Origin: Archangium violaceum
Lineage (GTDB): Bacteria; Myxococcota; Myxococcia; Myxococcales; Myxococcaceae
Reading direction: 5' to 3'
DNA length: 64,000 nucleotides
Assembly: GCF_016859125.1 (NCBI RefSeq)
Contig: NZ_CP069338.1
Location: 4,837,501-4,901,500, forward strand
Part shown: piece by piece, positions 12,213 to 35,612 of the stretch
How the letters are laid out: every line of letters starts with the position of its first letter
How positions within the stretch are numbered: the first letter of the stretch is position 1
Position numbers and translations under genes: made by a program
The notes under the pieces: generated by a model
The model's input: the letters and a program-made list of their open reading frames with translations, nothing else
The model's database searches: none
Told to the model about the DNA's origin: nothing

Positions 12213-13235
12213 ATGAATTTCCTCTCGCGAAGTGCATTGTGGCTGTGGGCAGCGGTTTGGCAGTCCTTGCATGGGTATCCCTCGCTGCCGCGAGCACGCG
12301 CCTTGTCAGCGGTGGTGGGAGCGCTCACGTACCTGGCGGTACCCGTCGCACACGCGGAGGAGTCGTCGAAGGTCGTGGTGCCGACAACGAAGAACCCCTA
12401 CATCTCCGCGGTCGCCACGCTCTACAAGAAGGCCAGGTACGAGGAGGCCCAGTCCAAGCTGGAGAAGGCCTTGGAGTGGAAGTCCAATGGGACCCAGGAG
12501 GTACTCTGGCTCAAGCTCATGCAGGGCGTGCTGCAGGCGGAGCTGGCCCAGGGAAATGCGCTGGAGTCCTTCAAGGAGGCCCTGGCGCTGAACAAGGAAG
12601 CGCAGTTGCCCGTGCAGGGCTCCAGGCGCTTGCGCAAGCTCTTCGAGCAGGCCCGCAGCACGCTCGGGCTGCCCGCGGACAAGGAGCTCCTGGCGCAGGA
12701 GTTGGATGTGAGACCTGTTGCTCCTGTGGCGCCAGGGGTGTCTGGCCCCCCACCGCGGCGGTATGGAATGAGCGTGGGACTACGCGTCGAGGTGGATGTG
12801 CTCGAGGTCAGTATGCTCTTGGGGGCGCGCGGCGAGGATGAGGAGGATGCGCCCGAGTCCGGCTCCACCATCTTGCCCATCACTCCCGCGGTGAGCCTCG
12901 GGTACACCCGCGAGAAGCTGGGGGGCGCGCTGACGCTGCTGGTACAGCCCTCACCGGGACTCAGGGCGGAGGGGCAATTCCATCCGCTCACGCTGGGGTG
13001 GGTGCGGCCCTATGCGAGGTTGGGCGCCACGGCTTTCTTCCGAGAGAAGGACGCGCAAGGGGTATACACCTTTCTCGGAGGTGTGAGCGGACGAGGGGCC
13101 CTCGGGGCGGACGTGCAGTTGAATTCCCGCATGTTTGTCTTTGCCGACGTGGCCTACGAGCGCTTCTTCATCGGTGGAGATCGGTACAGGTCGCAGTCAG
13201 TTCTGTTCTCGGTGGGCGTGGGCCTGTTCCCCTGA
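12213..13235 (+). CDS. Exported TPR-like protein with C-terminal outer membrane barrel
   Basis: A 340-aa protein with an N-terminal export signal (hydrophobic LSAVVGALTYLAVPVAHAEE, cleavage likely after AHA near residue 48). Residues 60-155 are Lys/Glu-rich helical repeats of the TPR kind (ATLYKKARYEEAQSKLEKAL). A short Pro-rich linker follows. Residues 185-340 alternate hydrophobic and polar residues as in transmembrane beta strands and end in VLFSVGVGLFP, close to the aromatic C-terminus used for outer membrane insertion. The layout is common among uncharacterised myxobacterial envelope proteins. It stands 54 bp before a kelch lipoprotein gene on the same strand, so the two may be co-transcribed. 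No specific function is recognisable. Confidence 0.7.
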   Translation: MNFLSRSALWLWAAVWQSLHGYPSLPRARALSAVVGALTYLAVPVAHAEESSKVVVPTTKNPYISAVATLYKKARYEEAQSKLEKALEWKSNGTQEVLWLKLMQGVLQAELAQGNALESFKEALALNKEAQLPVQGSRRLRKLFEQARSTLGLPADKELLAQELDVRPVAPVAPGVSGPPPRRYGMSVGLRVEVDVLEVSMLLGARGEDEEDAPESGSTILPITPAVSLGYTREKLGGALTLLVQPSPGLRAEGQFHPLTLGWVRPYARLGATAFFREKDAQGVYTFLGGVSGRGALGADVQLNSRMFVFADVAYERFFIGGDRYRSQSVLFSVGVGLFP

Positions 13236-13289: not shown

Positions 13290-16200
13290 ATGACATTTGC
13301 ATCCAAGCTTGATGCGGGAGTGATTGCTTGGCTAGCCATGGCCTCAGCTCTTCTATGGCTAGCTTGCGGCGAAGTGCCGCAGGGCGGGGACGAAGACCTG
13401 CGCCGCGAAGGGCTAGAGTCCCGAGCCCTCCTGAGCATGGCTGATGGGGCGTGGCTCATAACAGGCTCAATGAATGCGCCTCGTAGGGAACATACGGCGA
13501 CGCTGTTGCCGGACGGCAAGGTTCTCGTTGTTGGGGGGCAGGCGCAGGCGCCATATGACGTACACGACAGCGCGGAGGTGTACGACCCGGGCACGGGCAT
13601 GTGGAGTCCCACGGGCTCTTTGGCTACGGCCCGCGGGAACCACACGGCGACCCTGTTGCCGTCAGGCAAGGTGCTGGTCACCGGAGGGAGAACCCTAGGC
13701 TTCGTTCCCCTTTCCAGCGCGGAATTGTACGACCCAGTCACGGGGACGTGGCGCACCATGTCTGGGCTGAACATAGGCGGCGGTTATAACCACACGGCGA
13801 CCCTGTTGCCGTCAGGCAAGGTGCTAGTCACCGGAGGGACGAACGGATTTAGTCCCCAATCCATTACGGAGGTGTACGATCCGGACACGGGGGGGTGGAG
13901 TATCGCTGGCGGTCTGGCCACGGCCCGCCACAGCCACACGGCGACACTGTTGCCCTCGGGCAAGGTGCTGGTCACTGGAGGCTGGGGCCCATACGGTCCC
14001 CTTTCCAGCGCGGAGGTGTACGATCCGAGAACGGGGATGGGGCGCCCCACAGGCTCTTTGGCTATGCCCCGCTACGGCCACACGGCGACACTGTTGCCCT
14101 CGGGCAAGGTGCTGGTCACCGGAGGCTTAACTCATGACAATGCTGGCATCGTCATTGCGGAGGTGTACGACCCGACCACGGAGGAGTGGAGCCCCACGGG
14201 CATTTTGTCCACAGCCCGCGGACTCCATACGGCGACGTTGCTGCCTTCAGGCAAGGTGCTGGTCACCGGAGGCTGGGACCCAAGTGGCGCCTCCCTCCCC
14301 AGTGCAGAGGTGTACGACCCAAAAACAGGGGCGTGGAGCCACACGGGCGCTCTGTCCATGGCCCGCGGACTCCACACGGCGACGCTATTGCTTACAGGCA
14401 AGGTACTGGTCACGGGAGGTGGGTATGCAAGCGACGCTTCCCTCGCTAGCGCGGAGGTGTACGATCCGGGTAGGGAGGTGTGGAGCCCCACGGGCGCGCT
14501 GGCCATAGCCCGCTACAGTCACACGGCGACGCTGTTGCCCTCGGGAAAAGTGCTGGTCACCGGAGGCTGGGGTCCTAGCGACCAACTCGCCAACGCGGAG
14601 GTGTATGACCCGGGCACAGGGGAGTGGAGCCCCACGGGTCCTTTGGCTACGGCTCGCAGCTGGCATACGGCGACGCTGTTGCCCTCGGGCAATGTGCTGG
14701 TCACCGGGGGCTGGGGCCCAAGCGGCACCTCCCTCGCCAGCGCAGTGGTGTACAATCCGGGTACGGGGAAGTGGAGCGCCACGGGCGCGCTGGCCACGAC
14801 CCGTTACCGGCACACGGCAACGCTGTTGCCCTCGGGCAAGGTGTTGGTCACAGGAGGGGTAGACTCAAACGGCTCCCTCAAACTTGCAGAGGTGTACAAC
14901 CCGGGTACGGGGGAATGGAGCCCCACGGGCGCGCTGGCCACGGCCCGCTACAACCACACGGCGACGCTGTTGCCTTCGGGCAAGGTGCTGGTCATCGGAG
15001 GAGCGGGCAAATACGGCGACATTGTCGCCAGTGCGGAGGTGTACGACCCGACCACGGGGGAGTGGAGCCCCACGGGCGCGCTGGCCACGGCCCGCTACAG
15101 CCACACGGCGACGTTGTTGCCCTCGGGCAAGGTGCTGGTCACAGGAGGCTGGGACCCAAGTGGCGCTTCTCTCTCCAGTGCGGAGGTGTACGACCCGGGC
15201 ATTGGGATGTGGAGTCCCACGGGCACTCTGGCCACGGCCCGCTATAACCACACGGCGACGCTGTTGCCCTCGGGCAAGGTGCTGGTCACAGGAGGCTGGG
15301 GCCCTAGTGGAGCTTCCCTCCCCAGTGCGGAGGTGTACGACCCGGGCTCAGGAATGTGGAGTCCCACGGGCGCGCTGGCCATAGCCCGCTACAGTCACAC
15401 GGCGACGCTGTTGCCCTCGGGCAAGGTGCTGATCTCCGGAGGTAAATGGAACTTAAGCTACAACCTCGCCAACGCGGAGGTGTATGACCCGGGCACAGGG
15501 GAGTGGAGCCCCACGGGTCCTTTGGCTACGGCTCGCAGCTGGCATACGGCGACGCTGTTGCCCTCGGGCAATGTGCTGGTCACCGGGGGCTGGGGCCCAA
15601 GCGGCACCTCCCTCGCCAGCGCAGTGGTGTACAACCCGGGTACGGGGAAGTGGAGCGCCACGGGCGCGCTGGCCACGACCCGTTACCGGCACACGGCAAC
15701 GCTGTTGCCCTCGGGCAAGGTGTTGGTCACAGGAGGGGTAGACTCAAACGGCTCCCTCAAACTTGCAGAGGTGTACAACCCGGGTACGGGGGAATGGAGC
15801 CCCACGGGCGCGCTGGCCACGGCCCGCTACAACCACACGGCGACGCTGTTGCCTTCGGGCAAGGTGCTGGTCATCGGAGGAGCGGGCAAATACGGCGACA
15901 TTGTCGCCAGTGCGGAGGTGTACGACCCGACCACGGGGGAGTGGAGCCCCACGGGCGCGCTGGCCACGGCCCGCTACAGCCACACGGCGACGTTGTTGCC
16001 CTCGGGCAAGGTGCTGGTCACAGGAGGCTGGGACCCAAGTGGCGCTTCTCTCTCCAGTGCGGAGGTGTACGACCCGGGCATTGGGATGTGGAGTCCCACG
16101 GGCACTCTGGCCACGGCCCGCTATAACCACACGGCGACGCTGTTGCCCTCGGGCAAGGTGCTGGTCACAGGAGGCTGGGGCCCTAGTGGAGCTTCCCTCC

Positions 16201-17993
16201 CCAGTGCGGAGGTGTACGACCCGGGCTCAGGAATGTGGAGTCCCACGGGCGCGCTGGCCATAGCCCGCTACAGTCACACGGCGACGCTGTTGCCCTCGGG
16301 CAAGGTGCTGATCTCCGGAGGCTGGGGCTTGCTAGGTGACGAACTCGCGAGCGCGGAGGTGTACGATTCGAGCACGGGGGCGTGGAGTACTACGTACCCG
16401 CTGGTCATGGCCCGCTACAGTCACACGGCGACACTGTTGCCCTCGGGCAAGGTGTTGGTTACTGGAGGCGCCAACCAAGGCAATGATTCCCTCGCCAGCA
16501 CGGAGGTGTACGAAGACACGGAAACTCGCCAGGAGTGGCGCCCCGTCATCACCCCACCCGCCGAGCAACAACGAGGTGGAATATTTTGCATAACTGGGAG
16601 CCGCTTGCGAGGTCTATCGGAGGCAAGCAGCGGTAACGCTCAGAGTTCCGCTACGAATCTTCCTCTGGTCAGCCTGTTGTCACTGGAAAGTGGAGCGCTG
16701 ACACATGTGACGCCTTTAGCCTCGTTCTCCGATACGATGGTAACTGTACGGGTGCCGAGCGTGCCGGACGGCTATTACATCCTTTCCGTGATATCCAATG
16801 CCATACATGGTGGGCAGTTGCTGCTTGTGACCGGGCCCCCTATGGCTGCACCCACGGTGATAGCGCCTGAGGATGAGGCCTTTGTTAACAACCCGCAGCC
16901 AATCATCCGCGGCATGGCGGAGGCTGGTAGCACGGTGACGGTGTGGCTGGATGAGAAGGAAGTGCTAGGGACTGGCATCGTTGTGGATGCCTCGGGCAAC
17001 TGGAGTTTTACCCCAGTCGCCGCGCTGTCTCAGGGCGACTACCAAGTCAAGGCCACCGCCATGAATGCGGTGGGCAACGTTAGCGCTCAATCGGAGCCCC
17101 GCCGCTTTACTGTGGACACGGAGGCGCCGTCGGCGCCCACGGTGACCGATCCTAAGGGGGGCGCCGTAGTCAACAACCCACATTCAGTCATTCGCGGCAT
17201 GGCGGAGCCAGGCTGTACAGTCAAGGTGTTTCTGGGTACAAATGAGGCGGGGTCGGTCATGGCGGATGCCACGGGAGCTTGGAACTTCACCCCAGCCACC
17301 GCGCTGCTTGAGGGGTTCAACCAGGTCAATACCACCGCCACAGATGCGGCGGAAAATGTCAGTCCTCCCTCCAACTTTCGCATATTCATGGTCGACTCTG
17401 TGGCGCCAAATGCGCCCGAGGTGACCGCGCTTGATGCCACTACCAACACCCGAAAGCCAGTCATTAGCGGCATAGCGGAGCCATACAGCAAGGTGACAAT
17501 GTGGCTGGATGGGAATGAGATAGCACCAACCCTGGCGAACGCAGCGGGGTACTGGAGTTTCACCCTGGCTTCTTCACTGAGTTTCGGACCCCACTCCATC
17601 TCCGCCACCGCGACAGATGCGGCGGGCAACATCAGTTCGTTCTCAGATGAGTATTCTTTCTTCATCCAGAGGAGCCATTACGGTTGGAGTTGCGCCACTG
17701 CGCCCGCCTCCCCTGCCGTCTGGGCCTTGCTGACACTGGTCTTGGCTTTCGGCAGGCGCCGGCTCAGGTCTCCCCCTTGGCCGGGCGCCCCCGCCCCCGC
17801 TCCTGCTCGTCGCGGGCGTGGGCCTCGCGAGCTTCCTCGGGGCGCTCGCCCAGGTAACGCTGGCGCTGCCGTACCTCCAGGCTCGCGCTGGTCATCTGGC
17901 GCAGGCGCTCGCGCAGCGCTTCCACCCCCAGACCCCACACCCGCGCGGAGCCATCGTTCAGGGCGACCGCCAGCACGTCCCCCCGAGGACTGA
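13290..17993 (+). CDS. Giant kelch-repeat surface lipoprotein with Ig-like domains
   Basis: A 1567-aa secreted protein. A signal peptide ends in a near-lipobox (LLWLAC, Cys 26). It is followed by 21 kelch-type blades of about 49 residues (core HTATLLPSGKVLVTGG, then AEVYDPGTG), a linker, and three Ig-like repeats (about 1185-1455; VIRGMAEPGCTVKVFL type). A tail HYGWSC, hydrophobic stretch and RRR resembles a C-terminal sorting/anchor signal. Such proteins are expected at the cell surface, possibly in adhesion or recognition. The frame does not stop after the RRR: it runs another 76 or so codons antisense to the CHAT gene, giving a Pro/Arg/Ala-rich tail unlike the rest. The stop has probably been lost. 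ATG 13290 has GGAGG five bases upstream. Blades 9-14 are repeated as 15-20 in an almost identical duplication. Confidence 0.85.
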   Translation: MTFASKLDAGVIAWLAMASALLWLACGEVPQGGDEDLRREGLESRALLSMADGAWLITGSMNAPRREHTATLLPDGKVLVVGGQAQAPYDVHDSAEVYDPGTGMWSPTGSLATARGNHTATLLPSGKVLVTGGRTLGFVPLSSAELYDPVTGTWRTMSGLNIGGGYNHTATLLPSGKVLVTGGTNGFSPQSITEVYDPDTGGWSIAGGLATARHSHTATLLPSGKVLVTGGWGPYGPLSSAEVYDPRTGMGRPTGSLAMPRYGHTATLLPSGKVLVTGGLTHDNAGIVIAEVYDPTTEEWSPTGILSTARGLHTATLLPSGKVLVTGGWDPSGASLPSAEVYDPKTGAWSHTGALSMARGLHTATLLLTGKVLVTGGGYASDASLASAEVYDPGREVWSPTGALAIARYSHTATLLPSGKVLVTGGWGPSDQLANAEVYDPGTGEWSPTGPLATARSWHTATLLPSGNVLVTGGWGPSGTSLASAVVYNPGTGKWSATGALATTRYRHTATLLPSGKVLVTGGVDSNGSLKLAEVYNPGTGEWSPTGALATARYNHTATLLPSGKVLVIGGAGKYGDIVASAEVYDPTTGEWSPTGALATARYSHTATLLPSGKVLVTGGWDPSGASLSSAEVYDPGIGMWSPTGTLATARYNHTATLLPSGKVLVTGGWGPSGASLPSAEVYDPGSGMWSPTGALAIARYSHTATLLPSGKVLISGGKWNLSYNLANAEVYDPGTGEWSPTGPLATARSWHTATLLPSGNVLVTGGWGPSGTSLASAVVYNPGTGKWSATGALATTRYRHTATLLPSGKVLVTGGVDSNGSLKLAEVYNPGTGEWSPTGALATARYNHTATLLPSGKVLVIGGAGKYGDIVASAEVYDPTTGEWSPTGALATARYSHTATLLPSGKVLVTGGWDPSGASLSSAEVYDPGIGMWSPTGTLATARYNHTATLLPSGKVLVTGGWGPSGASLPSAEVYDPGSGMWSPTGALAIARYSHTATLLPSGKVLISGGWGLLGDELASAEVYDSSTGAWSTTYPLVMARYSHTATLLPSGKVLVTGGANQGNDSLASTEVYEDTETRQEWRPVITPPAEQQRGGIFCITGSRLRGLSEASSGNAQSSATNLPLVSLLSLESGALTHVTPLASFSDTMVTVRVPSVPDGYYILSVISNAIHGGQLLLVTGPPMAAPTVIAPEDEAFVNNPQPIIRGMAEAGSTVTVWLDEKEVLGTGIVVDASGNWSFTPVAALSQGDYQVKATAMNAVGNVSAQSEPRRFTVDTEAPSAPTVTDPKGGAVVNNPHSVIRGMAEPGCTVKVFLGTNEAGSVMADATGAWNFTPATALLEGFNQVNTTATDAAENVSPPSNFRIFMVDSVAPNAPEVTALDATTNTRKPVISGIAEPYSKVTMWLDGNEIAPTLANAAGYWSFTLASSLSFGPHSISATATDAAGNISSFSDEYSFFIQRSHYGWSCATAPASPAVWALLTLVLAFGRRRLRSPPWPGAPAPAPARRGRGPRELPRGARPGNAGAAVPPGSRWSSGAGARAALPPPDPTPARSHRSGRPPARPPED
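14586..15442 (+). repeat. Tandem duplication, copy 1 (inside kelch gene)
   Basis: This 857-bp segment recurs 879 bp downstream with a single difference seen (T at about 14756 against C in copy 2). It covers six kelch blades and keeps the reading frame (879 = 3 x 293). Such identity, far above that between other blades, points to a recent unequal recombination. Confidence 0.9.
15465..16321 (+). repeat. Tandem duplication, copy 2 (inside kelch gene)
   Basis: This is the second copy of the segment at 14586-15442. The short stretch between the copies (15443-15464, encoding KWNLSYN) is unlike the matching part of either flank and may mark the junction. Confidence 0.9.
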
Positions 17994-20900
17994 AGGCCGC
18001 CACCGTCACGCGTTCCCCGTTACCGGCGAGCACCAGGGGCTCGCCGCTGCCATCCGCGGGCCACACCCGCACTGTTCCGTCCCCCGAGGCCGTCACCACC
18101 CGCGTGCCTCGGGGATCGAACCGCGCGGTGTGTCCTCGGAGCACGATTGCCTCCCCTGACGCCTCGGTGGACCACACCCACACCGTTTTGTCCTGGGAGG
18201 CGGTCAACACCCGCGCTCCGTCCGGGCTGAACTCCGCGCTCACCACCGCCTGCTCATGTCCCCTGAGCACCACCGGTTCACCCCGGCCGTCCGCGCGCCA
18301 GACCCGCGCCGTCCCATCATCCGAGGCCGTCACCACCCGTTCTCCCTCCGGACTGAAAGCCGCCGCCACCACCCGGCCCGTGTGTCCTCGGAGCACCACC
18401 GGCTCGCTGTAACCGTCCGCGCGCCAGACCCGCGCCGTCCCATCATCCGAGGCCGTCACCACGCGTCTCCCCTCGGGGCTGAAGGCCGCGCTCCGGAGGA
18501 ACTCCGTATGTCCTTGGAGCACCACAGGCACGCCACGGCCATCCGCGCGCCAGACCCGCGCCGTCCCATCCCATGAGGCCGTCACCACGCGCTCCCCCTC
18601 CGGGCCGAACGCCGCTGTCACCACCCGGCCCGTGTGCTCTCGGAGCACCACCGGCTCGCCTCGGCCATCCACCCGCCACACTCGCGCCGTCCCATCCACC
18701 GAGGCCGTCACCACGCGCTCCCCGTCCGGGCTGAAGGCCACCGTTCGCACCTCGGCCCCATGTCCCTTGAGCAGCACCATGTCCAAGCCACCGCTCAGCC
18801 ACCACACCACCGCCGTGCCATCCGCATGCGCGGTCGCCAGGTGCTCCCCCCGAGGGCTGAAGGCCAGGGCCTGCACCGCGCCCCCTCGGCGAGGCAGGGT
18901 GAGCGCCTGTGGCTGGGCGCGCCATCGCCATACGCGCGCACTGCCGTCCCGGGAGGCCGTCACCACGCGCTCCCCTTCCGAGCTGAAGCTCGCGGACAGC
19001 ACCTCATCCGTGTGCCCCAGCAACTCCGCGGGCGCACCGGTCCCGTCCGTACGCCGCACCCGTGCCGTCCCGTCCCGCGAGGCCGTCACCACCCACTTGC
19101 CATCCGGGCTGAAGGCCACCGAGAGCGACTCCCCGGTGTCTCCCGCCAGCCGCATCCCCTCGCCCTTTCCGTCCGCCCGCCACAGGCGCACCGTCCCATC
19201 CGCATGCGCGCTCGCCACCAGCCCTCCATCCGGGCTGAAGGCCACCGCATTGACCAGACCGGAGTCGCTCCGCCGCACGCTGGGCTCCCCCTGCCCATCC
19301 GCGCGCCACACCCGTACCGCTCCGTCCACCGAGGCCGTGGCCACCCGGCTCCCATCCGGGCTGAAGACCGCGGCCCGCACGTCGCCAGGATGGGGGAGCA
19401 CGGCCAGCTCGCCCCGCCCATCCGCGTGCCACACCCGCGCCGTCCCGTCCCGCGAGGCCGTCACCACCCGTTCGCCAGCCCTGTCGAAGGCCGCGGCCAC
19501 CACGGCCTGCTCGTGGCCCCGGAGCACCACGGGCACCCCGGTGCCATCCGCGCGCCACACCCGCGCCGTCCCATCCCGTGAGGCCGTCACCACCCGTTCC
19601 CCCTCGGGACTGAAAGCCGCCGCCACCACTTCCCCCATGTGCCCCGCGAGCAGCTCCGGGCCCGCGCCCCCCTCCACCCACCACACCCGCGCCGTCCTGT
19701 CCGCCGAGGCCGTCACCACCCGCCGCCCATCCGGGCTGAAGGCCGCGGTCAGCACCTCCCCGCCGTGCCCCTCGAGCACTCGCGGCACGCCCGTACCATC
19801 CGCGCGCCACACCCGCGCCGTCCCGTCTCGCGACGCCGTCACCACCCACCTGCCATCCGCGCTGAGCGCCGCCGCGCGCACCGGTCCCCGGTGGCCCCGC
19901 AGCACCGCCGAGGCGAGCGGCTGCTGGAGCACCTCCAACGCCGCCTGCGTCCACGCCAGGTGTTGTTCGGGCTCACGCACCTCCAGCAGCACCAGCAGGG
20001 CCGCAGTGGGGTCCTCCCTGCGCAGCTTGTCCGCCACGAGCAGCCGGGCGAAATCCCGCAGCCGCTCCTGGTGCCTGCGCTCCTCGCGTGCCAGGCGCTC
20101 CGCCCGCTCCCGGCTCGCGTCGATGAACGGGTGCACCCGCTCGTCCAGCTCGTCCGGGTGGGCCTGCTGGAGCTCCAGGGCGTCCTCCAGACGCCGGCCT
20201 CGCAGGAGGTAGTCCTCCGCATGCGCCGATTCCCGCTGGGCCTGCCAGGCCTCCGCCCCCGCGCGCAGCTCGAGTCTCTTGCGCCGTCGTGCCTGTCCGT
20301 CCCGGAGCCACTCGGCCAGGGGCAGCCAGTTGCGCAGCAGCGCCTCGTGGGCCACCTCGATGGAGACCTCGCCCCCTTCCGCCTCGCCGCCGAGCACCAG
20401 CACCCGGGCCTCCACGAGCCGCCCCAGCACGGTGTCGAAGGCGCGGCGCGCCCGCTCCTCCATGGGACGCACCTGCTCCCGCCACACGCGCTGGCCGGTG
20501 AAAGGGGCCGCCCCTTCCCGCACATCCACCAGCTCCACCAGGAGCCGACGCATCTGGTGTCGCTCCTCCTCGCTCAGCTCCAGGTACAGCCTGTCCAGCT
20601 CCTGGGCGAGCGCCCCGGCCACGCCGCCCATGGCCTGGTAGGCGCTGTGTTTGAGCCATCGTCCCTCGCGCAGCCGCCACAGCCGCTCCAGCGCATGTGC
20701 CAGCAGGGGCAGTCCGCCCGGCTGACGCTCCACCTCCTGCAGGAGCCGCTCCGTCAGCCCTTCCTCCAGCATGAGGCCCTGCTGACGCGCGGGATTCTCA
20801 ATGGCCTCGCGCAGCTCACCCGCCGTCATCTCCGGCACCAGCAGCAGGCGCTCGCCCTCAAAGAGCACCGCGTCCAGCCGGAGCCCACTCTCCGTCAGCC

Positions 20901-22470
20901 GCACCTCCGCGCAGCGCCCCAGGTAGTCCACCCGCAGCGTCGCGAGCACCACCGAGCCCCGCTCGGGCTCCCGCGAGGCCTCCCACAGCGCGCTCAGCAG
21001 CTCCATGCGCTCGCCCTCACCCAGGCGGGAGAAGGCCTCGTCCAGCGGGTCCACCACCAGGAGCCTCCGCTTGCCCGGGGTGGTCCGCGCCGAACGTGCC
21101 ACCTCCGCCGCACCGGCCTCGCCCGCGCGCACCCACGTGAGTTCCCAGCGCTCGGGGGACAGCGTCGGCAGCAGTCCCGCCCGGAGCAGTGAGGACTTGC
21201 CGCTCCCGGAGGCGCCGGCGATGACCTGGAAGGCGGGGAACCGCCCCTCGGCGGCGGCCTCCACCCGCTGGAGCAGCGTCTGGCGGAGCGGCTCGCGGCC
21301 GAAGTAGCGCCGGTGGTCCTCCGGCTCGAAGGGCCGCAGGCCGCGGTAGGGCGGGAAGATGAAGGGGCGCAGGTCCGGCCCGTCCCCGGCGCGAGCGTAG
21401 AGCTGGAGCGAGGCCCCATCCATTCGAGCCCCCTCGAGCCGCAGTGCCTTGCGCGCCTCGGCCAGCGCCTGCTCCAGCGAGGTGTGGCGCCCGAGCAGCT
21501 CGCCATAGAGTGTGCGGGTGAGGGTGACGGAGCCCCCCGTGGAGAGTGGCAGCCGGGAGGCGACCACCGAGGCGAGGCCCGCGCGGTGGAGCTCGCGGGC
21601 CGGGCTGCCCAGGTGGTTGCCCGGGAGCCCCGCGTCGCCACCCCGGCAGGCGCACAGCACCACCATGCGGATGCGCTCGGCGTGCGGCTCGAGCGCGGCA
21701 CGGAGCGCGGCGGCGTCCACCACGTGCGGCTCCCCATCCATCCACGGGGAGCTCCAGGCGAGGCCATACGCCCCGGGCTCCGAGGGGGCGCCATGGCACA
21801 GCAGGTGGAGCGCGGCGATGGGCTCCTCACAGGCGCGCAGGGCCCGCTCGAGCGAGGCGATGCTCACCTGGGGGAGCACGTCGCGGCCCGGGTCGAAGTC
21901 ATACCCGGCGCGGGCGCAGGCCTGGGCGAGGGCGCGCTGGTGCGCCGCGGCGGGCACGTCCCCGGCCCAGGCGAAGAGGATGCGGCCTCCGGCGGGTGAA
22001 GGGGAGGCGGGTGGGTGGAAGCTCCGCGTCCCTGGCCGTTCGTAGCAAAGGGTGCAGCCCTCGAGGTCGCTCAGCGCCTGGCCGGTGGGCTCCAGCGTGA
22101 GCAGCTCCCAGGGGAGCACGCACAACTCGGCGGGCTCCAGACGCAGGGTGAGCCGCACCGGCCGGTGGGCCTCCAAGGCCTGCCACAGCCGTTGCTCGTC
22201 CTCGGCCCAACCCAGTGGCGCGAGGAAGGCGCGCAGCAGCTCGCCGAGCCGCTGGGCGGCGTTGGGGCTGGGGTGGCTGGAGCCCAGGCTGGCCAGGTCC
22301 TCCAGGGCACGCTCCCAGGGAAAGGAGGCGCGCACGGAGGTCCCCTCCTCGCGCAGGCGCAGGTAGTCCCGCGGCTGGAAGAGGAAGCGGTCGGTGTCTC
22401 GCGTGCGCTCGCCGGAGACGAGGTGGAGGGTGAGCTCCAGCGGGCTGGGGGCCACGGAGTGCTCGCTCAC
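17764..22470 (-). CDS. CHAT protease - STAND NTPase - WD40 protein
   Basis: A 1568-aa signalling protein. Residues 1-370 are a CHAT (caspase-like) domain with the expected dyad: His 226 in LHLLCHGAPS and Cys 275 in VVLCACRGGDAG. A STAND-type NTPase follows (FGREPLRQTLL, Walker A GASGSGKSS at 419-427, LLVVDPLDEAF as Walker B), then a helical region to about 850. The rest is 16 WD40 blades (SPEGERVVTASRDGTARVWR type); the fifteenth is shortened. In known STAND proteins the repeats sense a trigger, the NTPase oligomerises and the effector is released; here the effector would be proteolysis. It is the last gene of a three-gene operon, 3 bp after the TIR gene, and its 3' end overlaps the convergent kelch gene by 230 bp. 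Role in defence or cell death is inferred. Confidence 0.92.
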   Translation of the reverse strand: MSEHSVAPSPLELTLHLVSGERTRDTDRFLFQPRDYLRLREEGTSVRASFPWERALEDLASLGSSHPSPNAAQRLGELLRAFLAPLGWAEDEQRLWQALEAHRPVRLTLRLEPAELCVLPWELLTLEPTGQALSDLEGCTLCYERPGTRSFHPPASPSPAGGRILFAWAGDVPAAAHQRALAQACARAGYDFDPGRDVLPQVSIASLERALRACEEPIAALHLLCHGAPSEPGAYGLAWSSPWMDGEPHVVDAAALRAALEPHAERIRMVVLCACRGGDAGLPGNHLGSPARELHRAGLASVVASRLPLSTGGSVTLTRTLYGELLGRHTSLEQALAEARKALRLEGARMDGASLQLYARAGDGPDLRPFIFPPYRGLRPFEPEDHRRYFGREPLRQTLLQRVEAAAEGRFPAFQVIAGASGSGKSSLLRAGLLPTLSPERWELTWVRAGEAGAAEVARSARTTPGKRRLLVVDPLDEAFSRLGEGERMELLSALWEASREPERGSVVLATLRVDYLGRCAEVRLTESGLRLDAVLFEGERLLLVPEMTAGELREAIENPARQQGLMLEEGLTERLLQEVERQPGGLPLLAHALERLWRLREGRWLKHSAYQAMGGVAGALAQELDRLYLELSEEERHQMRRLLVELVDVREGAAPFTGQRVWREQVRPMEERARRAFDTVLGRLVEARVLVLGGEAEGGEVSIEVAHEALLRNWLPLAEWLRDGQARRRKRLELRAGAEAWQAQRESAHAEDYLLRGRRLEDALELQQAHPDELDERVHPFIDASRERAERLAREERRHQERLRDFARLLVADKLRREDPTAALLVLLEVREPEQHLAWTQAALEVLQQPLASAVLRGHRGPVRAAALSADGRWVVTASRDGTARVWRADGTGVPRVLEGHGGEVLTAAFSPDGRRVVTASADRTARVWWVEGGAGPELLAGHMGEVVAAAFSPEGERVVTASRDGTARVWRADGTGVPVVLRGHEQAVVAAAFDRAGERVVTASRDGTARVWHADGRGELAVLPHPGDVRAAVFSPDGSRVATASVDGAVRVWRADGQGEPSVRRSDSGLVNAVAFSPDGGLVASAHADGTVRLWRADGKGEGMRLAGDTGESLSVAFSPDGKWVVTASRDGTARVRRTDGTGAPAELLGHTDEVLSASFSSEGERVVTASRDGSARVWRWRAQPQALTLPRRGGAVQALAFSPRGEHLATAHADGTAVVWWLSGGLDMVLLKGHGAEVRTVAFSPDGERVVTASVDGTARVWRVDGRGEPVVLREHTGRVVTAAFGPEGERVVTASWDGTARVWRADGRGVPVVLQGHTEFLRSAAFSPEGRRVVTASDDGTARVWRADGYSEPVVLRGHTGRVVAAAFSPEGERVVTASDDGTARVWRADGRGEPVVLRGHEQAVVSAEFSPDGARVLTASQDKTVWVWSTEASGEAIVLRGHTARFDPRGTRVVTASGDGTVRVWPADGSGEPLVLAGNGERVTVAAFSPRGDVLAVALNDGSARVWGLGVEALRERLRQMTSASLEVRQRQRYLGERPEEAREAHARDEQERGRGRPAKGET

Positions 22471-22473
22471 GGT

Positions 22474-24021
22474 TCAGCTCACGTGCAGCCGTTCACGGAA
22501 GTAGCGCCGGTACAGCTCGCAGCGCGGCAGCACGGAGGCCGCCTCCTGCCGCACCAGCCCCGCGCTCCTCAGCCGGATGAACACGCCCTCATCCGGGCAG
22601 GCGTTGCGTTGCAGCACCTCGCGCAGCCCCTCCTTGAGTTGCGGCTGGCTGCCCAGCCGGAAGAGCAGGTGGCGCAGGTGGTCTCCGAATGGCCCCCGGT
22701 CCTCCGCCGCCTGGGTGAAAAGGTCCGCCACGCGCAGGCTGCCGCTGGCCACCAGGTACAGCGCCTTGCGGATCAGGTAGGGGTGCCCTCCCAGCAGGGC
22801 GAAGAGCTCCCGCTCCTGCTTCGGTTCCAGCGGCGCGCCATGCCGCCGGTTGAGCTCCGCCACCTGTTCCGCGGTGAAGTCGCCCAACTCCACCGTCTGC
22901 CCCACGTTGAAGGGGGACTGCGTCAGGTTCTTGATGAACAGGAAGGGTTCGGTCGAGGTCACCAGGACGATGCTGAGCTTCTTCCAGACGGGCGTGGTCG
23001 GCAGCGCGCGGTTGTTGTGCCAGCTGCGCAGCATGCCGAAGAAGTCCGTGCCGAAGGGCAGCTCGAAGAGGGTCTCCACCTCGTCCAGCCCCAGCACCAG
23101 GGGGGTGTCCAGCCCGCGCAGGACATGGCCGCTCATGTACAGCCCGCAGCGCTGGCTGCTGCCAATGGGCTTCTTCCAATAGGCCTCCACCTGGTTCTCC
23201 AGCTCGAGCTGATCACTCAGGGAGCTGCAGAAGCGTTGGAAGAAGAGATCCGGGTCGGAGAAGGTCGGGGTGTCGAACTCCTGGAACGAGAGGTAGGCCA
23301 CGCGCTTGCCGGCCTCGAGCGCGGCGGCCATGCCCCGCATGAGCAGCGAGCTCTTGCCCATCTGCCGCGCGCCCTTGATGGTGACGGTGGTGCCCTGCTT
23401 CTGTGAGACGGCCCTCGTCACCGCGGTATCGGCGTCCCGCACCACATAGAAGGCCGACTGCGTGTCCATGGCCCCCTCGAGGGTTGCATCCAGCTCGAGC
23501 GGTGCTGACGGCAGGGGGGGCGACAGGGCGGACGCGGCGGACTCGGACGGCGCCGTGGCCCGGGGGAGGTTCGGGGCCGCCGGTGCGGTTCCAGCTCCAG
23601 CCAGCGAGCCTCCGCTCATGGCCCTGGCGAACTGCTCGAGCAGACGCGGGGTGTCCTCCGGCCCTTCCCATAGGGCCCAGTTGATGGGACTGAGGTATCC
23701 GTTCAGGGGAGGGGGGAGGCGCTCGTGGTACGCGACCCGGACGGGGAGCAGGACCGGGCGGCCCCGCTGCGACTGCAGCCGGTGCGCCAGTTCGATCTCC
23801 GTCAGGGCCACCTCGCTGTTGACGGAGAACGGGGACAGCAGCGCGATGAAGAAGTCCGCCTGGCGGATCTCCGCATCGATGCGCTCCACCCACTTCTCGC
23901 CCACCAGCATGGAGGTATCGATGAAGACCTCGTGGGAGACCTTGAGCGCCTTGTAGAGGGCCTGGGCGAGGTCCTGATCCGGCGTGACATCGCGCTTGTA
24001 GCTGATGAAGACACGGGCCAT
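22474..24021 (-). CDS. TIR domain - AAA ATPase (AAA_35-like) protein
   Basis: A 515-aa cytoplasmic protein. Residues 1-140 are a TIR domain (MARVFISYKRD start, FIDTSMLVGEKW, SEVALTEIELAHRL, where Glu 75 or 77 would be the NAD-cleaving residue). A Ser/Ala/Pro linker leads to an AAA_35-type ATPase with Walker A GARQMGKSSLL near 222 and Walker B LVLGLDEVE near 312, and a winged-helix-like tail to residue 515. Bacterial TIR domains often cleave NAD once activated; others only signal. No repeat sensor is present, so it may be switched on by its neighbours. ATG 24021 starts exactly at the TIR domain; an upstream in-frame start would only add an Arg-rich stretch. It lies 89 bp after the AAA-WD40 gene and 3 bp before the CHAT gene, so they are probably one operon. 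Confidence 0.9.
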   Translation of the reverse strand: MARVFISYKRDVTPDQDLAQALYKALKVSHEVFIDTSMLVGEKWVERIDAEIRQADFFIALLSPFSVNSEVALTEIELAHRLQSQRGRPVLLPVRVAYHERLPPPLNGYLSPINWALWEGPEDTPRLLEQFARAMSGGSLAGAGTAPAAPNLPRATAPSESAASALSPPLPSAPLELDATLEGAMDTQSAFYVVRDADTAVTRAVSQKQGTTVTIKGARQMGKSSLLMRGMAAALEAGKRVAYLSFQEFDTPTFSDPDLFFQRFCSSLSDQLELENQVEAYWKKPIGSSQRCGLYMSGHVLRGLDTPLVLGLDEVETLFELPFGTDFFGMLRSWHNNRALPTTPVWKKLSIVLVTSTEPFLFIKNLTQSPFNVGQTVELGDFTAEQVAELNRRHGAPLEPKQERELFALLGGHPYLIRKALYLVASGSLRVADLFTQAAEDRGPFGDHLRHLLFRLGSQPQLKEGLREVLQRNACPDEGVFIRLRSAGLVRQEAASVLPRCELYRRYFRERLHVS

Positions 24022-24110
24022 GGGTCTCTCTCGTGTTATCTCACCGCGGTTCGTGCGGGTCCTCGCCCGCGCCATTCTTCACGGGGCCTCGTACCCGAGT
24101 CGTATCGGAA

Positions 24111-27100
24111 TCAGGGCAGGTCGGGGCACGTCTTTCGATAGGCGACGGCGTTGCCCACATCGGGGGGCCACTCATGGGGGGTCAGGTTTCGAGGCAACAA
24201 GGCGCATGCGAGCTGGATCCAGTCCTCTGGCTGTACGGGCCACAAGCGCGCGGTGTCATCTTCGCTGGCGGTGGCCACGCGCGAGCCATCCGGGCTGAAG
24301 GTCACGGCCAGGACGCGGCCCTTGTGCGGCAGGCGAGCGATCCGGCGGCCGGTGGTGGCGTCCCACAGGCGTGCCGAGTCGTCCTCACTGGCGGTGGCCA
24401 CGAGCTTTCCGTCCGGGCTGAAGGCCACGGCGGTGACGGTGTTGGCGTGATGCAACTGCCACCGCTGCTGGCCCGTGGCCACGTCCCACAATCGCGCGGT
24501 GCTGTCGTCGCTGACGGTGGCCAGGCTCCTGCCATCCGGGCTGAAGGCCAGCGCGGTGACGAAGAGGTCGTGCCGGAGGGGAGTGCCCTGGGGCTCGCCG
24601 GTGGCCGTGCTCCACAGGCGCGCGGTGTTGTCGTCACTGGCGGTGGCCACGAGCCTTCCATCGGGGCTGAAGGCCACGGCGTTGAGGGAGCCATCATGGG
24701 TCAGGGGGCTGGCCAGGGGCTCGCCGGTGGCCGAGCTCCACAGCCGCGCGGTGCTGTCATCGCTGGCGGTGGCCACGAGCTTTCCGTCCGGGCTGAAGGC
24801 CACGGCGGTGACGGCGTCGGCATGGTGCAGCAGCGCCCGCTGGCGCCCCGTGGCGATCTCCCAGAGCCGTGCGGTCTTGTCCTCACTGGCGGTGATGACC
24901 AGGCCGCCGTCGGGGCTGAAGGCCACCGCGAGCACGTTGTCCTCGTGGGTCAGGCGCGCCAGAGGAGTGCCGGTGGCCGCGTTCCACAGGCGCGCGGTGT
25001 TGTCATCACTGGTGGTGGCCACGCTCCTGCCATCCGGGCTGAAGGCCACGGCTCGGATTCGGGCGCCGTGCCGCAGGGGCCTGGCCAGGAGCTCGCCCGT
25101 GTCCACACGCCACAGGTGCGCGACGTTGTCTTCACTGGCCGTGACCAGGGTTTCGCCATCGGGACCGAAGGCCATGGCGGTCACTGCATTGTCATGTGAC
25201 AGGAGCACGAGCGGAGAGAGGGGAGCCACCCCCCACAGAAAGGCGTTTTTGCCGTCGCTGGCGGTGGCCAGCGCCTTGCCATCGGGGCTGAAGGCGACGG
25301 CGTTGACGGAGTTCTCATGGGGCAGGAGCACGAGCTGCTGCCCTGTCTTGGTTTCCCACAGGCGAGCCGTCTTGTCGCCACTGGCGGTGGCCACGAACCT
25401 GCCATCGGGGCTGAAGGCCACGGCCGTGACGGCCTTGTCATGGGGCAGGTTCCCACTGGGCTGGCGGGTGGTCACCTCCCACAGACGCGCGGTCTTGTCA
25501 TCGCCGGCGGTGGCCAGGTACTTCCCGTCCGGGCTGAAGGCCACGGCGTTGACGGGGCGTTGATGGAGCAGCCGGGCCTGGAACTCACCGGTGGCCGCGT
25601 TCCACAGGCGCGCGGTCGTGTCCGCGCAGGCGGTGGCCAGCGACTTTCCATCTGGGCTGAAGGCCACGGCGGTGACGCGACGCAGATGTTGCAGGGGCCT
25701 GGTCAGGGGCTCGCCAGTGGCCGTGCTCCACAGTTGCGCGGTGGTATCATCACTGGCGGTGGCCACGCTCTTGCCATCCGGGCTGAAGGCCACGGCGTTG
25801 ACAGAGCCCTTGTGGATGAAGGTCCTGCCCAGGGGTTGGCCGGTGTCTGTGCTCCATAGGCGCACGGTGCCATCATCACTGGCGGTGGCCACGTTCTTGC
25901 CATCCGGGCTGAAGGCCACGGCGGTGACGGCATCGGCATGGCGCAGCAGTGCCCGCTGGCGCCTCGTGGCGGTCTCCCAGAGCCGTGCGGTCTTGTCCTC
26001 ACCGGCGCTGATGACCAGGCTGCCGTCGGGGCTGAAGGCCACCGCGAGCACGTTGTTCTCATGAGCCAGGTGCGCCCGGGGCTTGCGGAGTTGAATGAGC
26101 GAGCGAACGAGCGAGTCCATGGCCTCGGGGGAGGGGTGGATCCGCGCGGCTTCCGTGGAGAGCGCGGCGCTGACGGTCAGAGCCGAGGAGGCACCGCGGA
26201 GCGTGGTATCCGCCTGGTTCAGGAAGACATAGGAGGCGGCCTCGCGCAGCTTCTGTCCGACCTCGGTTCTGGCGAGGGCGATTTCCTGCTCCGCCCGGGT
26301 CTTGTTCTCCTGGGCCTTTATCGCCTCGGCCTGCAGCTGCTGCGCGTTCCTGCGGAACTTGTCGGCCTCGCTCTTGGCCTGGCTGGCGTCCTTCTGGAGC
26401 CTTTGCGCCTCCTGTCGGGCCTCGGCGCGGATCCTGTTGGCCTCTTGCTCCACCAGGCGCTTGTCGGCCTCGGCCTCGGCCCTGAGTGTCTGCGCCTGGT
26501 CCAGCTGCTCGAGGGTCTCCAGGCGAGCGCGCTCCGTCTCCTGGAGCCTCGTGAACAGAACCACGGAGGCGGGCAGGAGCACGGCGAAGCCGGTGATCAC
26601 CAGCCCCAGGGCCGCCAGCCGTACCACCCGCCAATCCACCGGGAGCTGGCTCCGGGCCCAGGCCACGGTGAAGACACGCTCATAGATGGCGTTGCGCACC
26701 CGCAACACCTCGCCCTCCCGGCGCACCACCCCCGAGAGCTTGAGGTGCGCCTTCACCAGCGCTCGCTCCTCATCGAGCACCCGCCGGCCGCGGCGGATGT
26801 CCTGGTAGGTCCTGAGCACCCGCTCCGGGTCCGGCGCCCGCCGGGTCAGCATGTCGCGGACGAACACCAGGTTGTTGTCCTGGAAGCTCTTCTCCGCGAA
26901 GAAGGTCCGCTCCACCACCTGCGACACGTCCTGGCGTGTCCAGGCGCCATCGCGGGTCCGCGGCTGCTCGTCGACCAGGGCCTGGCAGAGCCGCTGCGTC
27001 AGGTAGGGGTGTCCTCCCGTCCACTCCAGCACCCACTCCAGGGTCCGCCGCCCCTCCTCGGCCGAATCCGCGAGCCCCTGTGCCAGCGGCGCGGCCTCTT

Positions 27101-27725
27101 CCAGGGTGAAGTCCGTGAGCTCCACCCGCTGCCCCAGGTTGAAGGGAGTGCGCTTCTCGTCCTGGATGAGGTCTCCAGGAGTGGCCACGCCCACGAGCAC
27201 GAAGGAGAGCCGCGCCAGCTCCGGGTTGCTCGCGCGCGCGTTGTAGAGGTAGCGGATGGCCGCGTAGAAGTCATCGGTGAAGCCCATGCCCAGGGTGGTG
27301 TCGATCTCGTCCACGAACACCACCACGCGCTGCTGGACCTCCGCGATCACCACCTCTTCCAGGAAGCGCGTCAGGCGCTGCACGGGGCCCTGGTCTCGGT
27401 TGCGGCTCCACCACTCGGTTGCGTCCGTGCCCAGCTCGAGCTGCTCCTGGATGACGACCAGCAGACCCACGTACCACTGGTCCGCCGTCACCTGCTTGCC
27501 AATGCGCGTCAGGTCGATGATGACCGAGCGGATGCCCTCTTCGTAGAGCTGCTCGGCGGTGCGCACCATCAAGCTCGACTTGCCCATCTGCCGAGCTGTC
27601 AGGACGAAGGCGAAGGTACCGGCCCGGCACAACTCCACCATCTCCGAGTCCGCCCGCCGGGCCAGGTAGACGCCTCCGCCCGCCTGCACCGTTCCGCCCA
27701 CTGTGTACAGGCGCGTGTCGCTCAC
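24111..27725 (-). CDS. AAA_35 ATPase - TM - coiled coil - WD40 protein
   Basis: A 1204-aa protein read from GTG 27725, which has GAGGA ten bases upstream; an ATG at 27797 is possible but adds residues not typical of the family. Order: a conserved start (LYTVGGTVQAGGGVYLARRA); an AAA_35 ATPase with Walker A TARQMGKSS near 43-51 and Walker B VVVFVDEID near 146; a winged-helix-like part; one transmembrane segment (LAALGLVITGFAVLLPASVV); a long charged coiled coil (RAEAEADKRLVEQEANRIRA); and 15 WD40 blades (HENNVLAVAFSPDG type). The ATPase and the WD40 array would sit on either side of the inner membrane or be tethered beside it. It has no effector domain of its own and may act as sensor for the TIR and CHAT proteins encoded after it. 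Confidence 0.9.
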   Translation of the reverse strand: MSDTRLYTVGGTVQAGGGVYLARRADSEMVELCRAGTFAFVLTARQMGKSSLMVRTAEQLYEEGIRSVIIDLTRIGKQVTADQWYVGLLVVIQEQLELGTDATEWWSRNRDQGPVQRLTRFLEEVVIAEVQQRVVVFVDEIDTTLGMGFTDDFYAAIRYLYNARASNPELARLSFVLVGVATPGDLIQDEKRTPFNLGQRVELTDFTLEEAAPLAQGLADSAEEGRRTLEWVLEWTGGHPYLTQRLCQALVDEQPRTRDGAWTRQDVSQVVERTFFAEKSFQDNNLVFVRDMLTRRAPDPERVLRTYQDIRRGRRVLDEERALVKAHLKLSGVVRREGEVLRVRNAIYERVFTVAWARSQLPVDWRVVRLAALGLVITGFAVLLPASVVLFTRLQETERARLETLEQLDQAQTLRAEAEADKRLVEQEANRIRAEARQEAQRLQKDASQAKSEADKFRRNAQQLQAEAIKAQENKTRAEQEIALARTEVGQKLREAASYVFLNQADTTLRGASSALTVSAALSTEAARIHPSPEAMDSLVRSLIQLRKPRAHLAHENNVLAVAFSPDGSLVISAGEDKTARLWETATRRQRALLRHADAVTAVAFSPDGKNVATASDDGTVRLWSTDTGQPLGRTFIHKGSVNAVAFSPDGKSVATASDDTTAQLWSTATGEPLTRPLQHLRRVTAVAFSPDGKSLATACADTTARLWNAATGEFQARLLHQRPVNAVAFSPDGKYLATAGDDKTARLWEVTTRQPSGNLPHDKAVTAVAFSPDGRFVATASGDKTARLWETKTGQQLVLLPHENSVNAVAFSPDGKALATASDGKNAFLWGVAPLSPLVLLSHDNAVTAMAFGPDGETLVTASEDNVAHLWRVDTGELLARPLRHGARIRAVAFSPDGRSVATTSDDNTARLWNAATGTPLARLTHEDNVLAVAFSPDGGLVITASEDKTARLWEIATGRQRALLHHADAVTAVAFSPDGKLVATASDDSTARLWSSATGEPLASPLTHDGSLNAVAFSPDGRLVATASDDNTARLWSTATGEPQGTPLRHDLFVTALAFSPDGRSLATVSDDSTARLWDVATGQQRWQLHHANTVTAVAFSPDGKLVATASEDDSARLWDATTGRRIARLPHKGRVLAVTFSPDGSRVATASEDDTARLWPVQPEDWIQLACALLPRNLTPHEWPPDVGNAVAYRKTCPDLP

Positions 27726-27864
27726 GCCGCGAGTATCCTCGGCCGTTGCCCCGTGCGTCCCTGGATTTTTCAAGGTGCTCCTCTGCCTGCCCCTCATCCT
27801 GGTGTGGAGCAGTGTCGGTCTTCCGGTATGGGTTTCGGCACTCGCGGCCTGATGGGGTGAACGC

Positions 27865-35316: not shown

Positions 35317-35612
35317 ATGCGGATCTCCTCGTGGCTCATGTGCGCATCCGACCAACTGGATTGCGAGACACACCAGGACGGCTCCCCAGGTGGGGCGCCG
35401 CTTTCACCGGCAGGGGCCGCCCTTTGCGCGCCTTTACGCGTCAATGGGCGGCGGCTGATGCGTCAGCGCCCAAGGTCCCCTCTGGGGTCTTGGTGGAAGC
35501 CAGGTTGCCACTCGATCCGTTTCGGTGCTGTGATGCGCCTCACCCTGCGGACGTGAAATGCCGCACACGGACCTTCCACATCACCGGTCCTCGCTCGTGA
35601 TGCTCGGCTTAG
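35317..35612. other. Intergenic region upstream of the kelch fusion, 296 bp
   Basis: Non-coding as far as I can see. It holds the ribosome site (GAGGAG) and presumably the promoter for the minus-strand kelch/STAND block. Short open stretches on both strands lack start signals and protein-like composition. It ends at the IS701-type element. Confidence 0.5.

What the first reader, a model, noticed from the sequence alone, without database searches (positions are those of the whole stretch)
17764..27725. Three-gene STAND operon: AAA-TM-WD40, TIR-AAA and CHAT-NTPase-WD40
Three proteins with three different outputs sit in one tight operon (3-bp and 89-bp gaps): a membrane-tethered WD40 ATPase, a TIR and a caspase-like protease. 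Each component resembles parts of known anti-phage or cell-death systems, but I do not know this combination as a described system. TIR and CHAT together could give NAD loss plus proteolysis.
Basis: partly seen in the sequence, partly recalled or inferred. Interest (0 to 1): 0.9.

Follow-up and report, generated by a model that had tools for sequence, protein, structure and literature searches.

The report
Split bacterial immune-type receptor operon
A soil myxobacterium carries an operon in which a membrane-anchored sensor protein is paired with two predicted killer enzymes, a layout that resembles the paired immune receptors of plants and recurs in other complex bacteria with the killer part swapped.

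Summary
The operon is real: P3 (AAA_35-TM-coiled coil-WD40), P2 (TIR-AAA_35), P1 (CHAT-nSTAND1-WD40), in an Archangium-like 12.68-Mb genome. Of 195 Myxococcota genomes screened, 7 have a close TIR-AAA_35 and all 7 have the trio. Its core is a pair of AAA_35 STAND proteins: P2 has an output domain and no sensor, P3 a sensor and no output. Pairs recur in cyanobacteria (45 of 58 P2-type genes within 10 kb of a P3-type) with swapped outputs: TIR, CHAT, trypsin, SIR2, phosphoesterase, GGDEF, cyclase. Partners co-evolve beyond genome kinship (0 of 2000 partner swaps reach the observed r) and are fused in some cyanobacteria. P3's single TM and C-terminal cysteine pair suggest a periplasmic, fast-evolving WD40 sensor. 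P1 comes from a mostly transmembrane receptor family but lacks the TM. A fourth gene, outer-membrane-barrel-like, has strong matches only in the 7 trio genomes (96 searched). Best model: P3 senses at the envelope and drives AAA_35 hetero-assembly with P2, giving TIR NADase plus CHAT proteolysis and cell suicide. Activity, assembly, death and phage defence are untested; the flanking genes tested show no clear defence island.

The parts
24111..27797 (-). P3: AAA_35 STAND (about res 21-385), single TM 397-415, coiled coil (by eye), WD40 propellers (about 576-1200), C-terminal Cys pair; proposed sensor. Likely start 27725 (GTG)
22474..24075 (-). P2: TIR_2 (res 22-137, E93) plus AAA_35 (200-528), nothing after it; proposed executor. 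Likely start 24021 (ATG)
17764..22470 (-). P1: CHAT (H226/C275), nSTAND1 (374-748), WD40 without TM; proposed second output
12213..13235 (+). p340: signal peptide (by eye), TPR-like, outer-membrane beta-barrel-like; candidate fourth component, convergent to the trio
13290..17993 (+). Kelch/Big repeat protein with a MYXO-CTERM-like end (recalled motif), between p340 and P1 in 3 loci; association uncertain

Best explanation
A split (paired) STAND receptor system. P3 sits in the inner membrane with its AAA_35 NTPase in the cytoplasm and its WD40 sensor in the periplasm. On binding a ligand, or on envelope damage, it nucleates ATP-dependent hetero-oligomerisation with the sensor-less TIR-AAA_35 protein P2 through the shared AAA_35 fold. 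TIR clustering consumes NAD+, and the soluble CHAT-nSTAND1-WD40 protein P1 is recruited to, or triggered by, the same assembly and cleaves host proteins; the likely result is cell suicide or dormancy. Shown by computation: architecture, conservation, pairing, correlated divergence of partners, fusions, conserved active-site residues, predicted folds, faster change of P3's sensor side. Inferred: topology, hetero-assembly, NADase and protease activity, coupling of P1, death output, trigger.
For: Trio in the same order in 7 genomes (G004 split over two contigs, P1 of G002 in two frames). In 195 Myxococcota genomes all AAA_35 matches of 90 bits or more fall in 14 loci, each with two or three modules. 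Cyanobacteria: 45 of 58 P2-type genes near a P3-type. P2- and P3-type modules separate fully in a tree of 44 pairs. Distance matrices r=0.852; within-genome partner swaps mean 0.609, max 0.843, 0 of 2000 reach it. Fusions: AAA_35-AAA_35; CHAT, TIR and AAA_35 in 38 of 120 listed homologues (hand count; order checked in P0122, P0125 and L028); CHAT-nSTAND1-AAA_35 in P0348. Eleven residues or fewer follow AAA_35 in 45 of 47 P2-type proteins. TIR E93 invariant in 48 of 48 rows; CHAT H226/C275 invariant in 22 of 22. P2 model: best Foldseek hit the TIR-NLR RPP1. WD40-bearing P3-type proteins: TM in 25 of 28, Cys pair in 25 of 28. dN/dS against the window: P3 AAA_35 0.11-0.21, TM/coiled coil 0.37-1.16, WD40 0.37-0.62; P1 WD40 0.17-0.27.
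Against: No experiment. The flanking ORFs tested are not known defence genes, apart from a subtilase with a PADLOC match. Some P2-type proteins carry signalling enzymes (GGDEF 2, cyclase 2 of 46), at least 11 of 46 carry none of the named outputs, and relatives have CHASE2 sensors, so the class may be general signalling. Topology rests on a hydropathy scan and a cysteine pattern; 3 of 28 WD40-bearing P3-type proteins show no TM. 13 of 58 cyanobacterial P2-type genes have no P3-type within 10 kb. P1 is missing from the 7 other myxobacterial pair loci, so its coupling rests on the trio and one fusion. The disordered TIR-AAA_35 linker of P2 is also fast (58% identity), so fast change alone does not mark a sensor.
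Confidence: 0.5

Rival explanations
1. The pair is a general envelope or developmental signalling module: P3 senses a physiological cue, TIR makes a nucleotide signal and CHAT does regulated proteolysis (for example of a sigma-factor inhibitor), with no death and no invader.
For: GGDEF, cyclase and CHASE2 partners; no clear defence island; a sigma-54 activator gene and a Ser/Thr kinase gene near p340 in 3 of 6 loci compared (Pfam run on one copy of each); the CHAT model also matches the anti-sigma factor DdvA.
Against: TIR, caspase-like and trypsin-like domains are named as conflict-system outputs in PMC7159879 (section 20 read); SIR2 as defence output is recalled; the trio is patchy, 7 of 195 genomes; fast sensor-side change.
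Confidence: 0.3
2. Messenger cascade (a variant of the best model): the TIR of P2 makes an ADP-ribose-type signal that switches on the CHAT protein P1 at a distance, as reported for TIR and caspase-like proteins in Thoeris (recalled; only the title was seen, in a reference list).
For: TIR and a caspase-fold protease in one operon; CHAT H/C intact.
Against: P1 shows no small-molecule sensor such as SAVED in the Pfam and PADLOC lists (Pfam list cut at 25 of 43 families, the rest not seen) but STAND plus WD40; TIR and CHAT are often in one chain elsewhere, which fits joint scaffolding better.
Confidence: 0.15
3. P1 is an unrelated CHAT receptor that happens to sit beside the AAA_35 pair.
For: CHAT-nSTAND1-WD40 proteins are common in myxobacteria (8 CHAT genes in this genome); P1 is absent from the 7 other myxobacterial pair loci.
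Against: P1 proteins of the trio type form a separate group (CHAT part 77-88% to P0001, the others listed 53% or less) and have no TM (0 of 14 vs 38 of 45 relatives); order conserved in 7 genomes.
Confidence: 0.1
4. Same paired receptor, but with P3's WD40 in the cytoplasm: a membrane-tethered intracellular phage sensor (a variant of the best model).
For: Known Avs STANDs sense phage proteins inside the cell (recalled; Avs3 bound to phage terminase is among the fold matches); the TM could be only an anchor.
Against: One TM with more net positive charge on the NTPase side in most P3-type proteins, and a C-terminal Cys pair that goes with the TM (54 of 63 vs 6 of 21), place the WD40 outside; p340 looks like an envelope protein.
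Confidence: 0.2

Closest known systems
Plant paired NLRs (CHS3-CSA1; abstract of PMC11298796 seen)
   Same: Two linked STAND/TIR genes whose products form hetero-oligomers; the P2 model's best Foldseek match is the TIR-NLR RPP1
   Different: Sensor here is a transmembrane WD40 protein without an output domain; executor has no repeat sensor; hetero-assembly is not shown
nSTAND2 two-gene system (PMC8195603; passages and section 15 read)
   Same: Two STAND proteins in one operon, predicted hetero-multimer, variable output domain
   Different: There one NTPase is inactive and outputs are mostly GT4/HEPN; here both keep Walker A, the family is AAA_35, and the sensor is TM-WD40
MoxR-vWA ternary and EAD conflict systems of multicellular bacteria (PMC7159879; passages and sections 20, 30, 33 read)
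   Same: Similar grammar: swappable TIR and peptidase outputs, STAND cores, multicellular hosts; one TIR-AAA_35 relative has a weak EAD7 match (under the cut-off)
   Different: No MoxR or vWA domain in the three proteins
Thoeris and CBASS SAVED-CHAT
   Same: TIR or CHAT effectors; weak TIR and CHAT matches
   Different: ThcB4 far under its cut-off; no SAVED match
Avs / bNACHT STAND defence proteins
   Same: STAND core; Avs3 is a Foldseek match of P2
   Different: Sensor and output of the P2/P3 pair are on separate proteins; AAA_35 rather than NACHT

Membership tests
STAND NTPases | P-loop NTPase with helical and winged-helix region (P2) | tested here: met
STAND NTPases | Intact Walker A | tested here: met
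   GK[ST] printed for 53 of 53 P3-type and 46 of 47 P2-type modules, the window's included
TIR NADase | TIR fold and catalytic Glu | tested here: met
TIR NADase | NAD+ cleavage | not testable with these tools
   needs an assay
CHAT peptidases | Caspase/separase fold with His-Cys dyad | tested here: met
   Foldseek: Csx29/TPR-CHAT, separase, caspase-4; H226/C275 invariant 22 of 22; dyad geometry not measured
Thoeris | ThsB/ThcB-type TIR above family cut-off | tested here: not met
   ThcB4 22.9 bits vs cut-off 220; ThsB 16.8 bits (no cut-off given)
CBASS SAVED-CHAT | SAVED domain fused to CHAT | tested here: not met
   only the CHAT part matches (res 10-370 to 4-276 of 498); the rest of P1 is nSTAND1-WD40
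MoxR-vWA ternary systems | MoxR AAA+ and vWA genes with the STAND | tested here: not met
   not in the trio (best 25 families per protein); among 10 flanking ORFs tested a VIT-vWA gene at 53142-56225, about 25 kb away, and no MoxR
nSTAND2 two-gene system | One of the two STANDs inactive | tested here: not met
   both keep Walker A and an acidic Walker B pair
Avs / bNACHT | Effector, STAND and sensor on one chain | tested here: not met
   for the P2/P3 pair; P1 alone has that layout
Anti-phage defence system | Protects against phage | not testable with these tools
   needs phage challenge

The most novel reading that the evidence does not exclude
AAA_35 pairs are a widespread, so far unnamed class of bacterial paired NLRs: a transmembrane sensor STAND and a sensor-less executor STAND that co-evolve and swap outputs (TIR, SIR2, CHAT, trypsin, phosphoesterase, cyclase). 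In Archangium and kin the system spans the whole envelope, with an outer-membrane barrel (p340), a periplasmic WD40 receptor and two cytosolic death enzymes; the CHAT arm was made from a former receptor that lost its membrane anchor.
Probability: 0.4. Interest if true: 0.85.

Novelty: new variant of a known kind. Interest (0 to 1): 0.68.

Why it matters
Known bacterial STAND defence proteins such as Avs put sensor, switch and effector on one chain (recalled). A conserved split with a membrane sensor would show that the division of labour between sensor and helper NLRs, known from plants, also exists in bacteria, and that STAND switches can read signals from outside the cytoplasm. The natural fusions, swapped outputs and 44 natural partner sets make partner specificity directly testable.

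Tried and rejected
Known defence system by model: PADLOC and NCBIfam gave only weak or partial matches for the three proteins. Defence island: 10 flanking ORFs by Pfam gave a fatty-acid desaturase, a polyketide-type synthase, a transposase, a subtilase, a histidine kinase, RCC1 repeats and VIT-vWA, and 3 without a match; of 10 flanking ORFs by PADLOC only the subtilase matched. Fixed chromosomal site: the subtilase relative of G002 is about 6 Mb from its trio, and the stretch upstream of the G002 trio has no blastn match over 250 bp to the window, but p340 and kelch genes are shared downstream, so neither simple mobility nor full synteny holds. Sequence search of solved structures gave nothing useful for P2 or CHAT. 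The genome-contig scan gave 4 loci. Kelch genes as system members: not accepted; they are several per locus and not between p340 and P1 in G128 and G135.

Rows dropped; weaker AAA_35 matches (63 bits or less) lie outside the 14 loci, 4 of them over or near the family cut-off (G192, G114, G127, G109) and unpaired at that score; the typed table left out matches under 40 bits and, by oversight, two of 44 and 42.4 bits in G232 that have no P2-type near; with them the reverse count is 52 of 63 instead of 52 of 61; the G002 protein is not in alignment A1 (46 of 47); 44 of 47 P2-type modules used (others had no partner on the locus or a truncated one); 28 of 53 P3-type proteins and 56 of 120 P1-type hits kept (others fused, short, or without WD40-like repeats). 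P0259 (46% identity) in neither group. L025 and L027 are the same loci as L065 and L067 and were counted once.
Full report
WHAT IS THERE. Three genes on the minus strand, in the order P3-P2-P1, make a tight operon. P3 is AAA_35, one TM, coiled coil, WD40. P2 is TIR_2-AAA_35 and ends with the NTPase. P1 is CHAT-nSTAND1-WD40. The genome has two AAA_35 matches, both here.

CONSERVATION OF THE TRIO. A search of 195 Myxococcota genomes with the AAA_35 model, followed by reading the loci, found the trio in the same order in 7 genomes: G000, G002 (P1 in two frames), G004 (split over two contig ends), G124 (contig length as in the Cystobacter fuscus DSM 2262 hit; P3 gene doubled), G128 (a Myxococcaceae MAG), G129 (Hyalangium versicolor) and G135 (contig length as in a Myxococcus sp. 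hit). Genus-mates G001, G003 and G005 have no AAA_35 match.

THE CORE IS AN AAA_35 PAIR. In one search all AAA_35 matches of 90 bits or more lie in 14 loci, each with two or three modules (the G004 pair is split over contig ends). Seven are the trio loci. In the other seven, a P2-type gene is followed by a P3-type gene, and the P2 output is TIR (G018), trypsin-like (G018, G125, G126, G128), calcineurin-like phosphoesterase (G129) or SIR2 (G129). Matches of 63 bits or less lie elsewhere and are unpaired. In 59 cyanobacterial genomes, 24 of them with a match, 45 of 58 P2-type matches lie within 10 kb of a P3-type one; 52 of 61 the other way (52 of 63 with two rows that I had left out); 4 of 58 P2-type genes have another P2-type that near; 20 of 21 genomes with a P2-type also have a P3-type. 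Among 46 P2-type proteins Pfam finds TIR_2 in 16, CHAT in 6, Trypsin_2 in 4, GGDEF in 2, guanylate cyclase in 2, HTH_26 in 2, SIR2 in 1, Metallophos in 1, GerE in 1; at least 11 of 46 have none of these.

THE PARTNERS BELONG TOGETHER. In a midpoint-rooted tree of 44 pairs, P2-type and P3-type modules form two exact clades (printed support 1.0 on the P2 side, 0.44 on the P3 side), so the pairs are not recent tandem copies. Their distance matrices correlate at r=0.852. Shuffling partners only within genomes, which keeps species kinship, gives a mean of 0.609 and a maximum of 0.843; 0 of 2000 reach the observed value. P3-type and P2-type modules share one chain in three loci read (L116, L117, L121); about 48 of 120 listed homologues cover 98% or more of that double protein (hand count), and two AAA_35 stretches were checked in P0126. 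CHAT, TIR and AAA_35 share one chain in 38 of the 120 listed P2 homologues (hand count; order CHAT-TIR-AAA_35 checked in P0122, P0125 and L028), and P0348 joins CHAT-nSTAND1 to AAA_35.

WHERE THE SENSOR IS. WD40-bearing P3-type proteins have a TM after the NTPase in 25 of 28 and two or more cysteines in the last 70 residues in 25 of 28. Over these and CHAT-nSTAND1-WD40 proteins together, the cysteine pair goes with the TM: 54 of 63 with a TM, 6 of 21 without (Fisher p=2e-6; kinship not corrected). The related protein P0217 has AAA_35, a cyclase and then CHASE2, a domain known for extracytoplasmic sensing (recalled). I infer a periplasmic WD40. Against the window's P3, the AAA_35 part of five orthologues shows dN/dS 0.11-0.21, the TM/coiled coil 0.37-1.16 and the WD40 0.37-0.62; in four P1 orthologues CHAT shows 0.18-0.39, nSTAND1 0.30-0.35 and WD40 0.17-0.27 (simple NG86 counts on repeat-rich alignments). 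Mean protein identities: P3 AAA_35 88%, TM/coiled coil 56%, WD40 62% (15 pairs); P1 WD40 81% (10 pairs); the short linker of P2 is 58%.

P1 LACKS THE ANCHOR. Of 45 other CHAT-nSTAND1-WD40 relatives, 38 have a TM and 35 a C-terminal cysteine pair; of 14 trio-type P1 proteins, 0 have a TM and 1 a cysteine pair. P1 thus looks like a former membrane receptor turned soluble (direction of change inferred), which fits a system in which P3 does the sensing.

A FOURTH GENE. p340 (12213-13235, +) has a signal peptide by eye, a TPR-like part and an outer-membrane-barrel-like end; the Pfam matches are under their cut-offs. In 96 genomes of the family, matches of 237 bits or more occur in the 7 trio genomes and in none of the other 89, where the best is 82.8 bits (at most 22 candidates per genome scored). 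It lies downstream of and convergent to P1: next to it in G128 and G135, beyond a kelch gene in G000, G002 and G124, about 4.8 kb on in G129; for G004 it is on another contig. G018, which has a TIR pair without CHAT gene, has no p340 match.

MECHANISM AND DOUBTS. The favoured reading is a paired receptor: envelope signal, P3, AAA_35 hetero-assembly with P2, TIR clustering and NAD+ loss, CHAT proteolysis by P1, cell death. Pairing is well supported; topology fairly; activity, coupling of P1 and death output are inferred. Signalling outputs elsewhere in the family and the lack of a clear defence island leave a general signalling role open.

KNOWN OR NEW. Searches for nSTAND1/CHAT/TIR/WD40, AAA_35 with TIR domain, iSTAND/nSTAND/TIR, PF14516, paired-NLR terms, CHAT/WD40/myxobacteria/caspase and AAA-like domain/TIR/WD40/cyanobacteria listed no paper that I recognised as describing AAA_35 pairs (titles and abstract starts seen); the library lacks most subscription papers. 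Closest in print: MoxR-vWA/EAD systems (PMC7159879; passages and sections 20, 30, 33 read) and the nSTAND2 two-gene system (PMC8195603; passages and section 15 read). PMC10907252, PMC13174449 and PMC9679502 were seen as passages. The TIR-to-caspase Thoeris paper is not held and was seen only as a reference. Hence: new variant of a known kind.

Noticed in passing
window 13290-17993 (+) and 27865-35373 (-): Giant kelch/Big-repeat proteins with MYXO-CTERM-like ends flank the trio on both sides; the 2502-aa one looks like two such proteins fused in one frame (fusion read by eye).
   Followed up: partly
window 17764-17993: The kelch ORF and P1 overlap by about 230 bp at their convergent 3' ends; a similar overlap (about 220 bp) is seen in G124.
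   Followed up: no
window 14600-16300: The ORF pattern repeats 879 bp apart (14624/15503, 14884/15763), so the kelch gene seems to hold a long recent tandem duplication.
   Followed up: no
L064:6846-14088: G124 has two adjacent P3 genes, both with AAA_35 about 94-95% and WD40 about 65-66% identical to the window's: a possible second sensor for one executor.
   Followed up: partly
L029:3894-8593: In the single-contig genome G002 the P1 gene reads in two overlapping frames (CHAT apart from most of nSTAND1-WD40): decay, phase variation or an assembly error.
   Followed up: no
L065:1224-2816, L144:2032-7756: Near p340 in G128, G129 and G135 lie a conserved sigma-54 activator (80-85% identity; Pfam on the G128 copy) and a kinase-TPR gene (Pfam on the G129 copy); possible regulators.
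   Followed up: partly
L139 (G002 8476610-8483719): G002 has extra partial copies of p340 near its trio and a further copy at 5931932.
   Followed up: no
window 37432-38277: IS4/5-type transposase (DUF4096) about 10 kb upstream of the operon.
   Followed up: no
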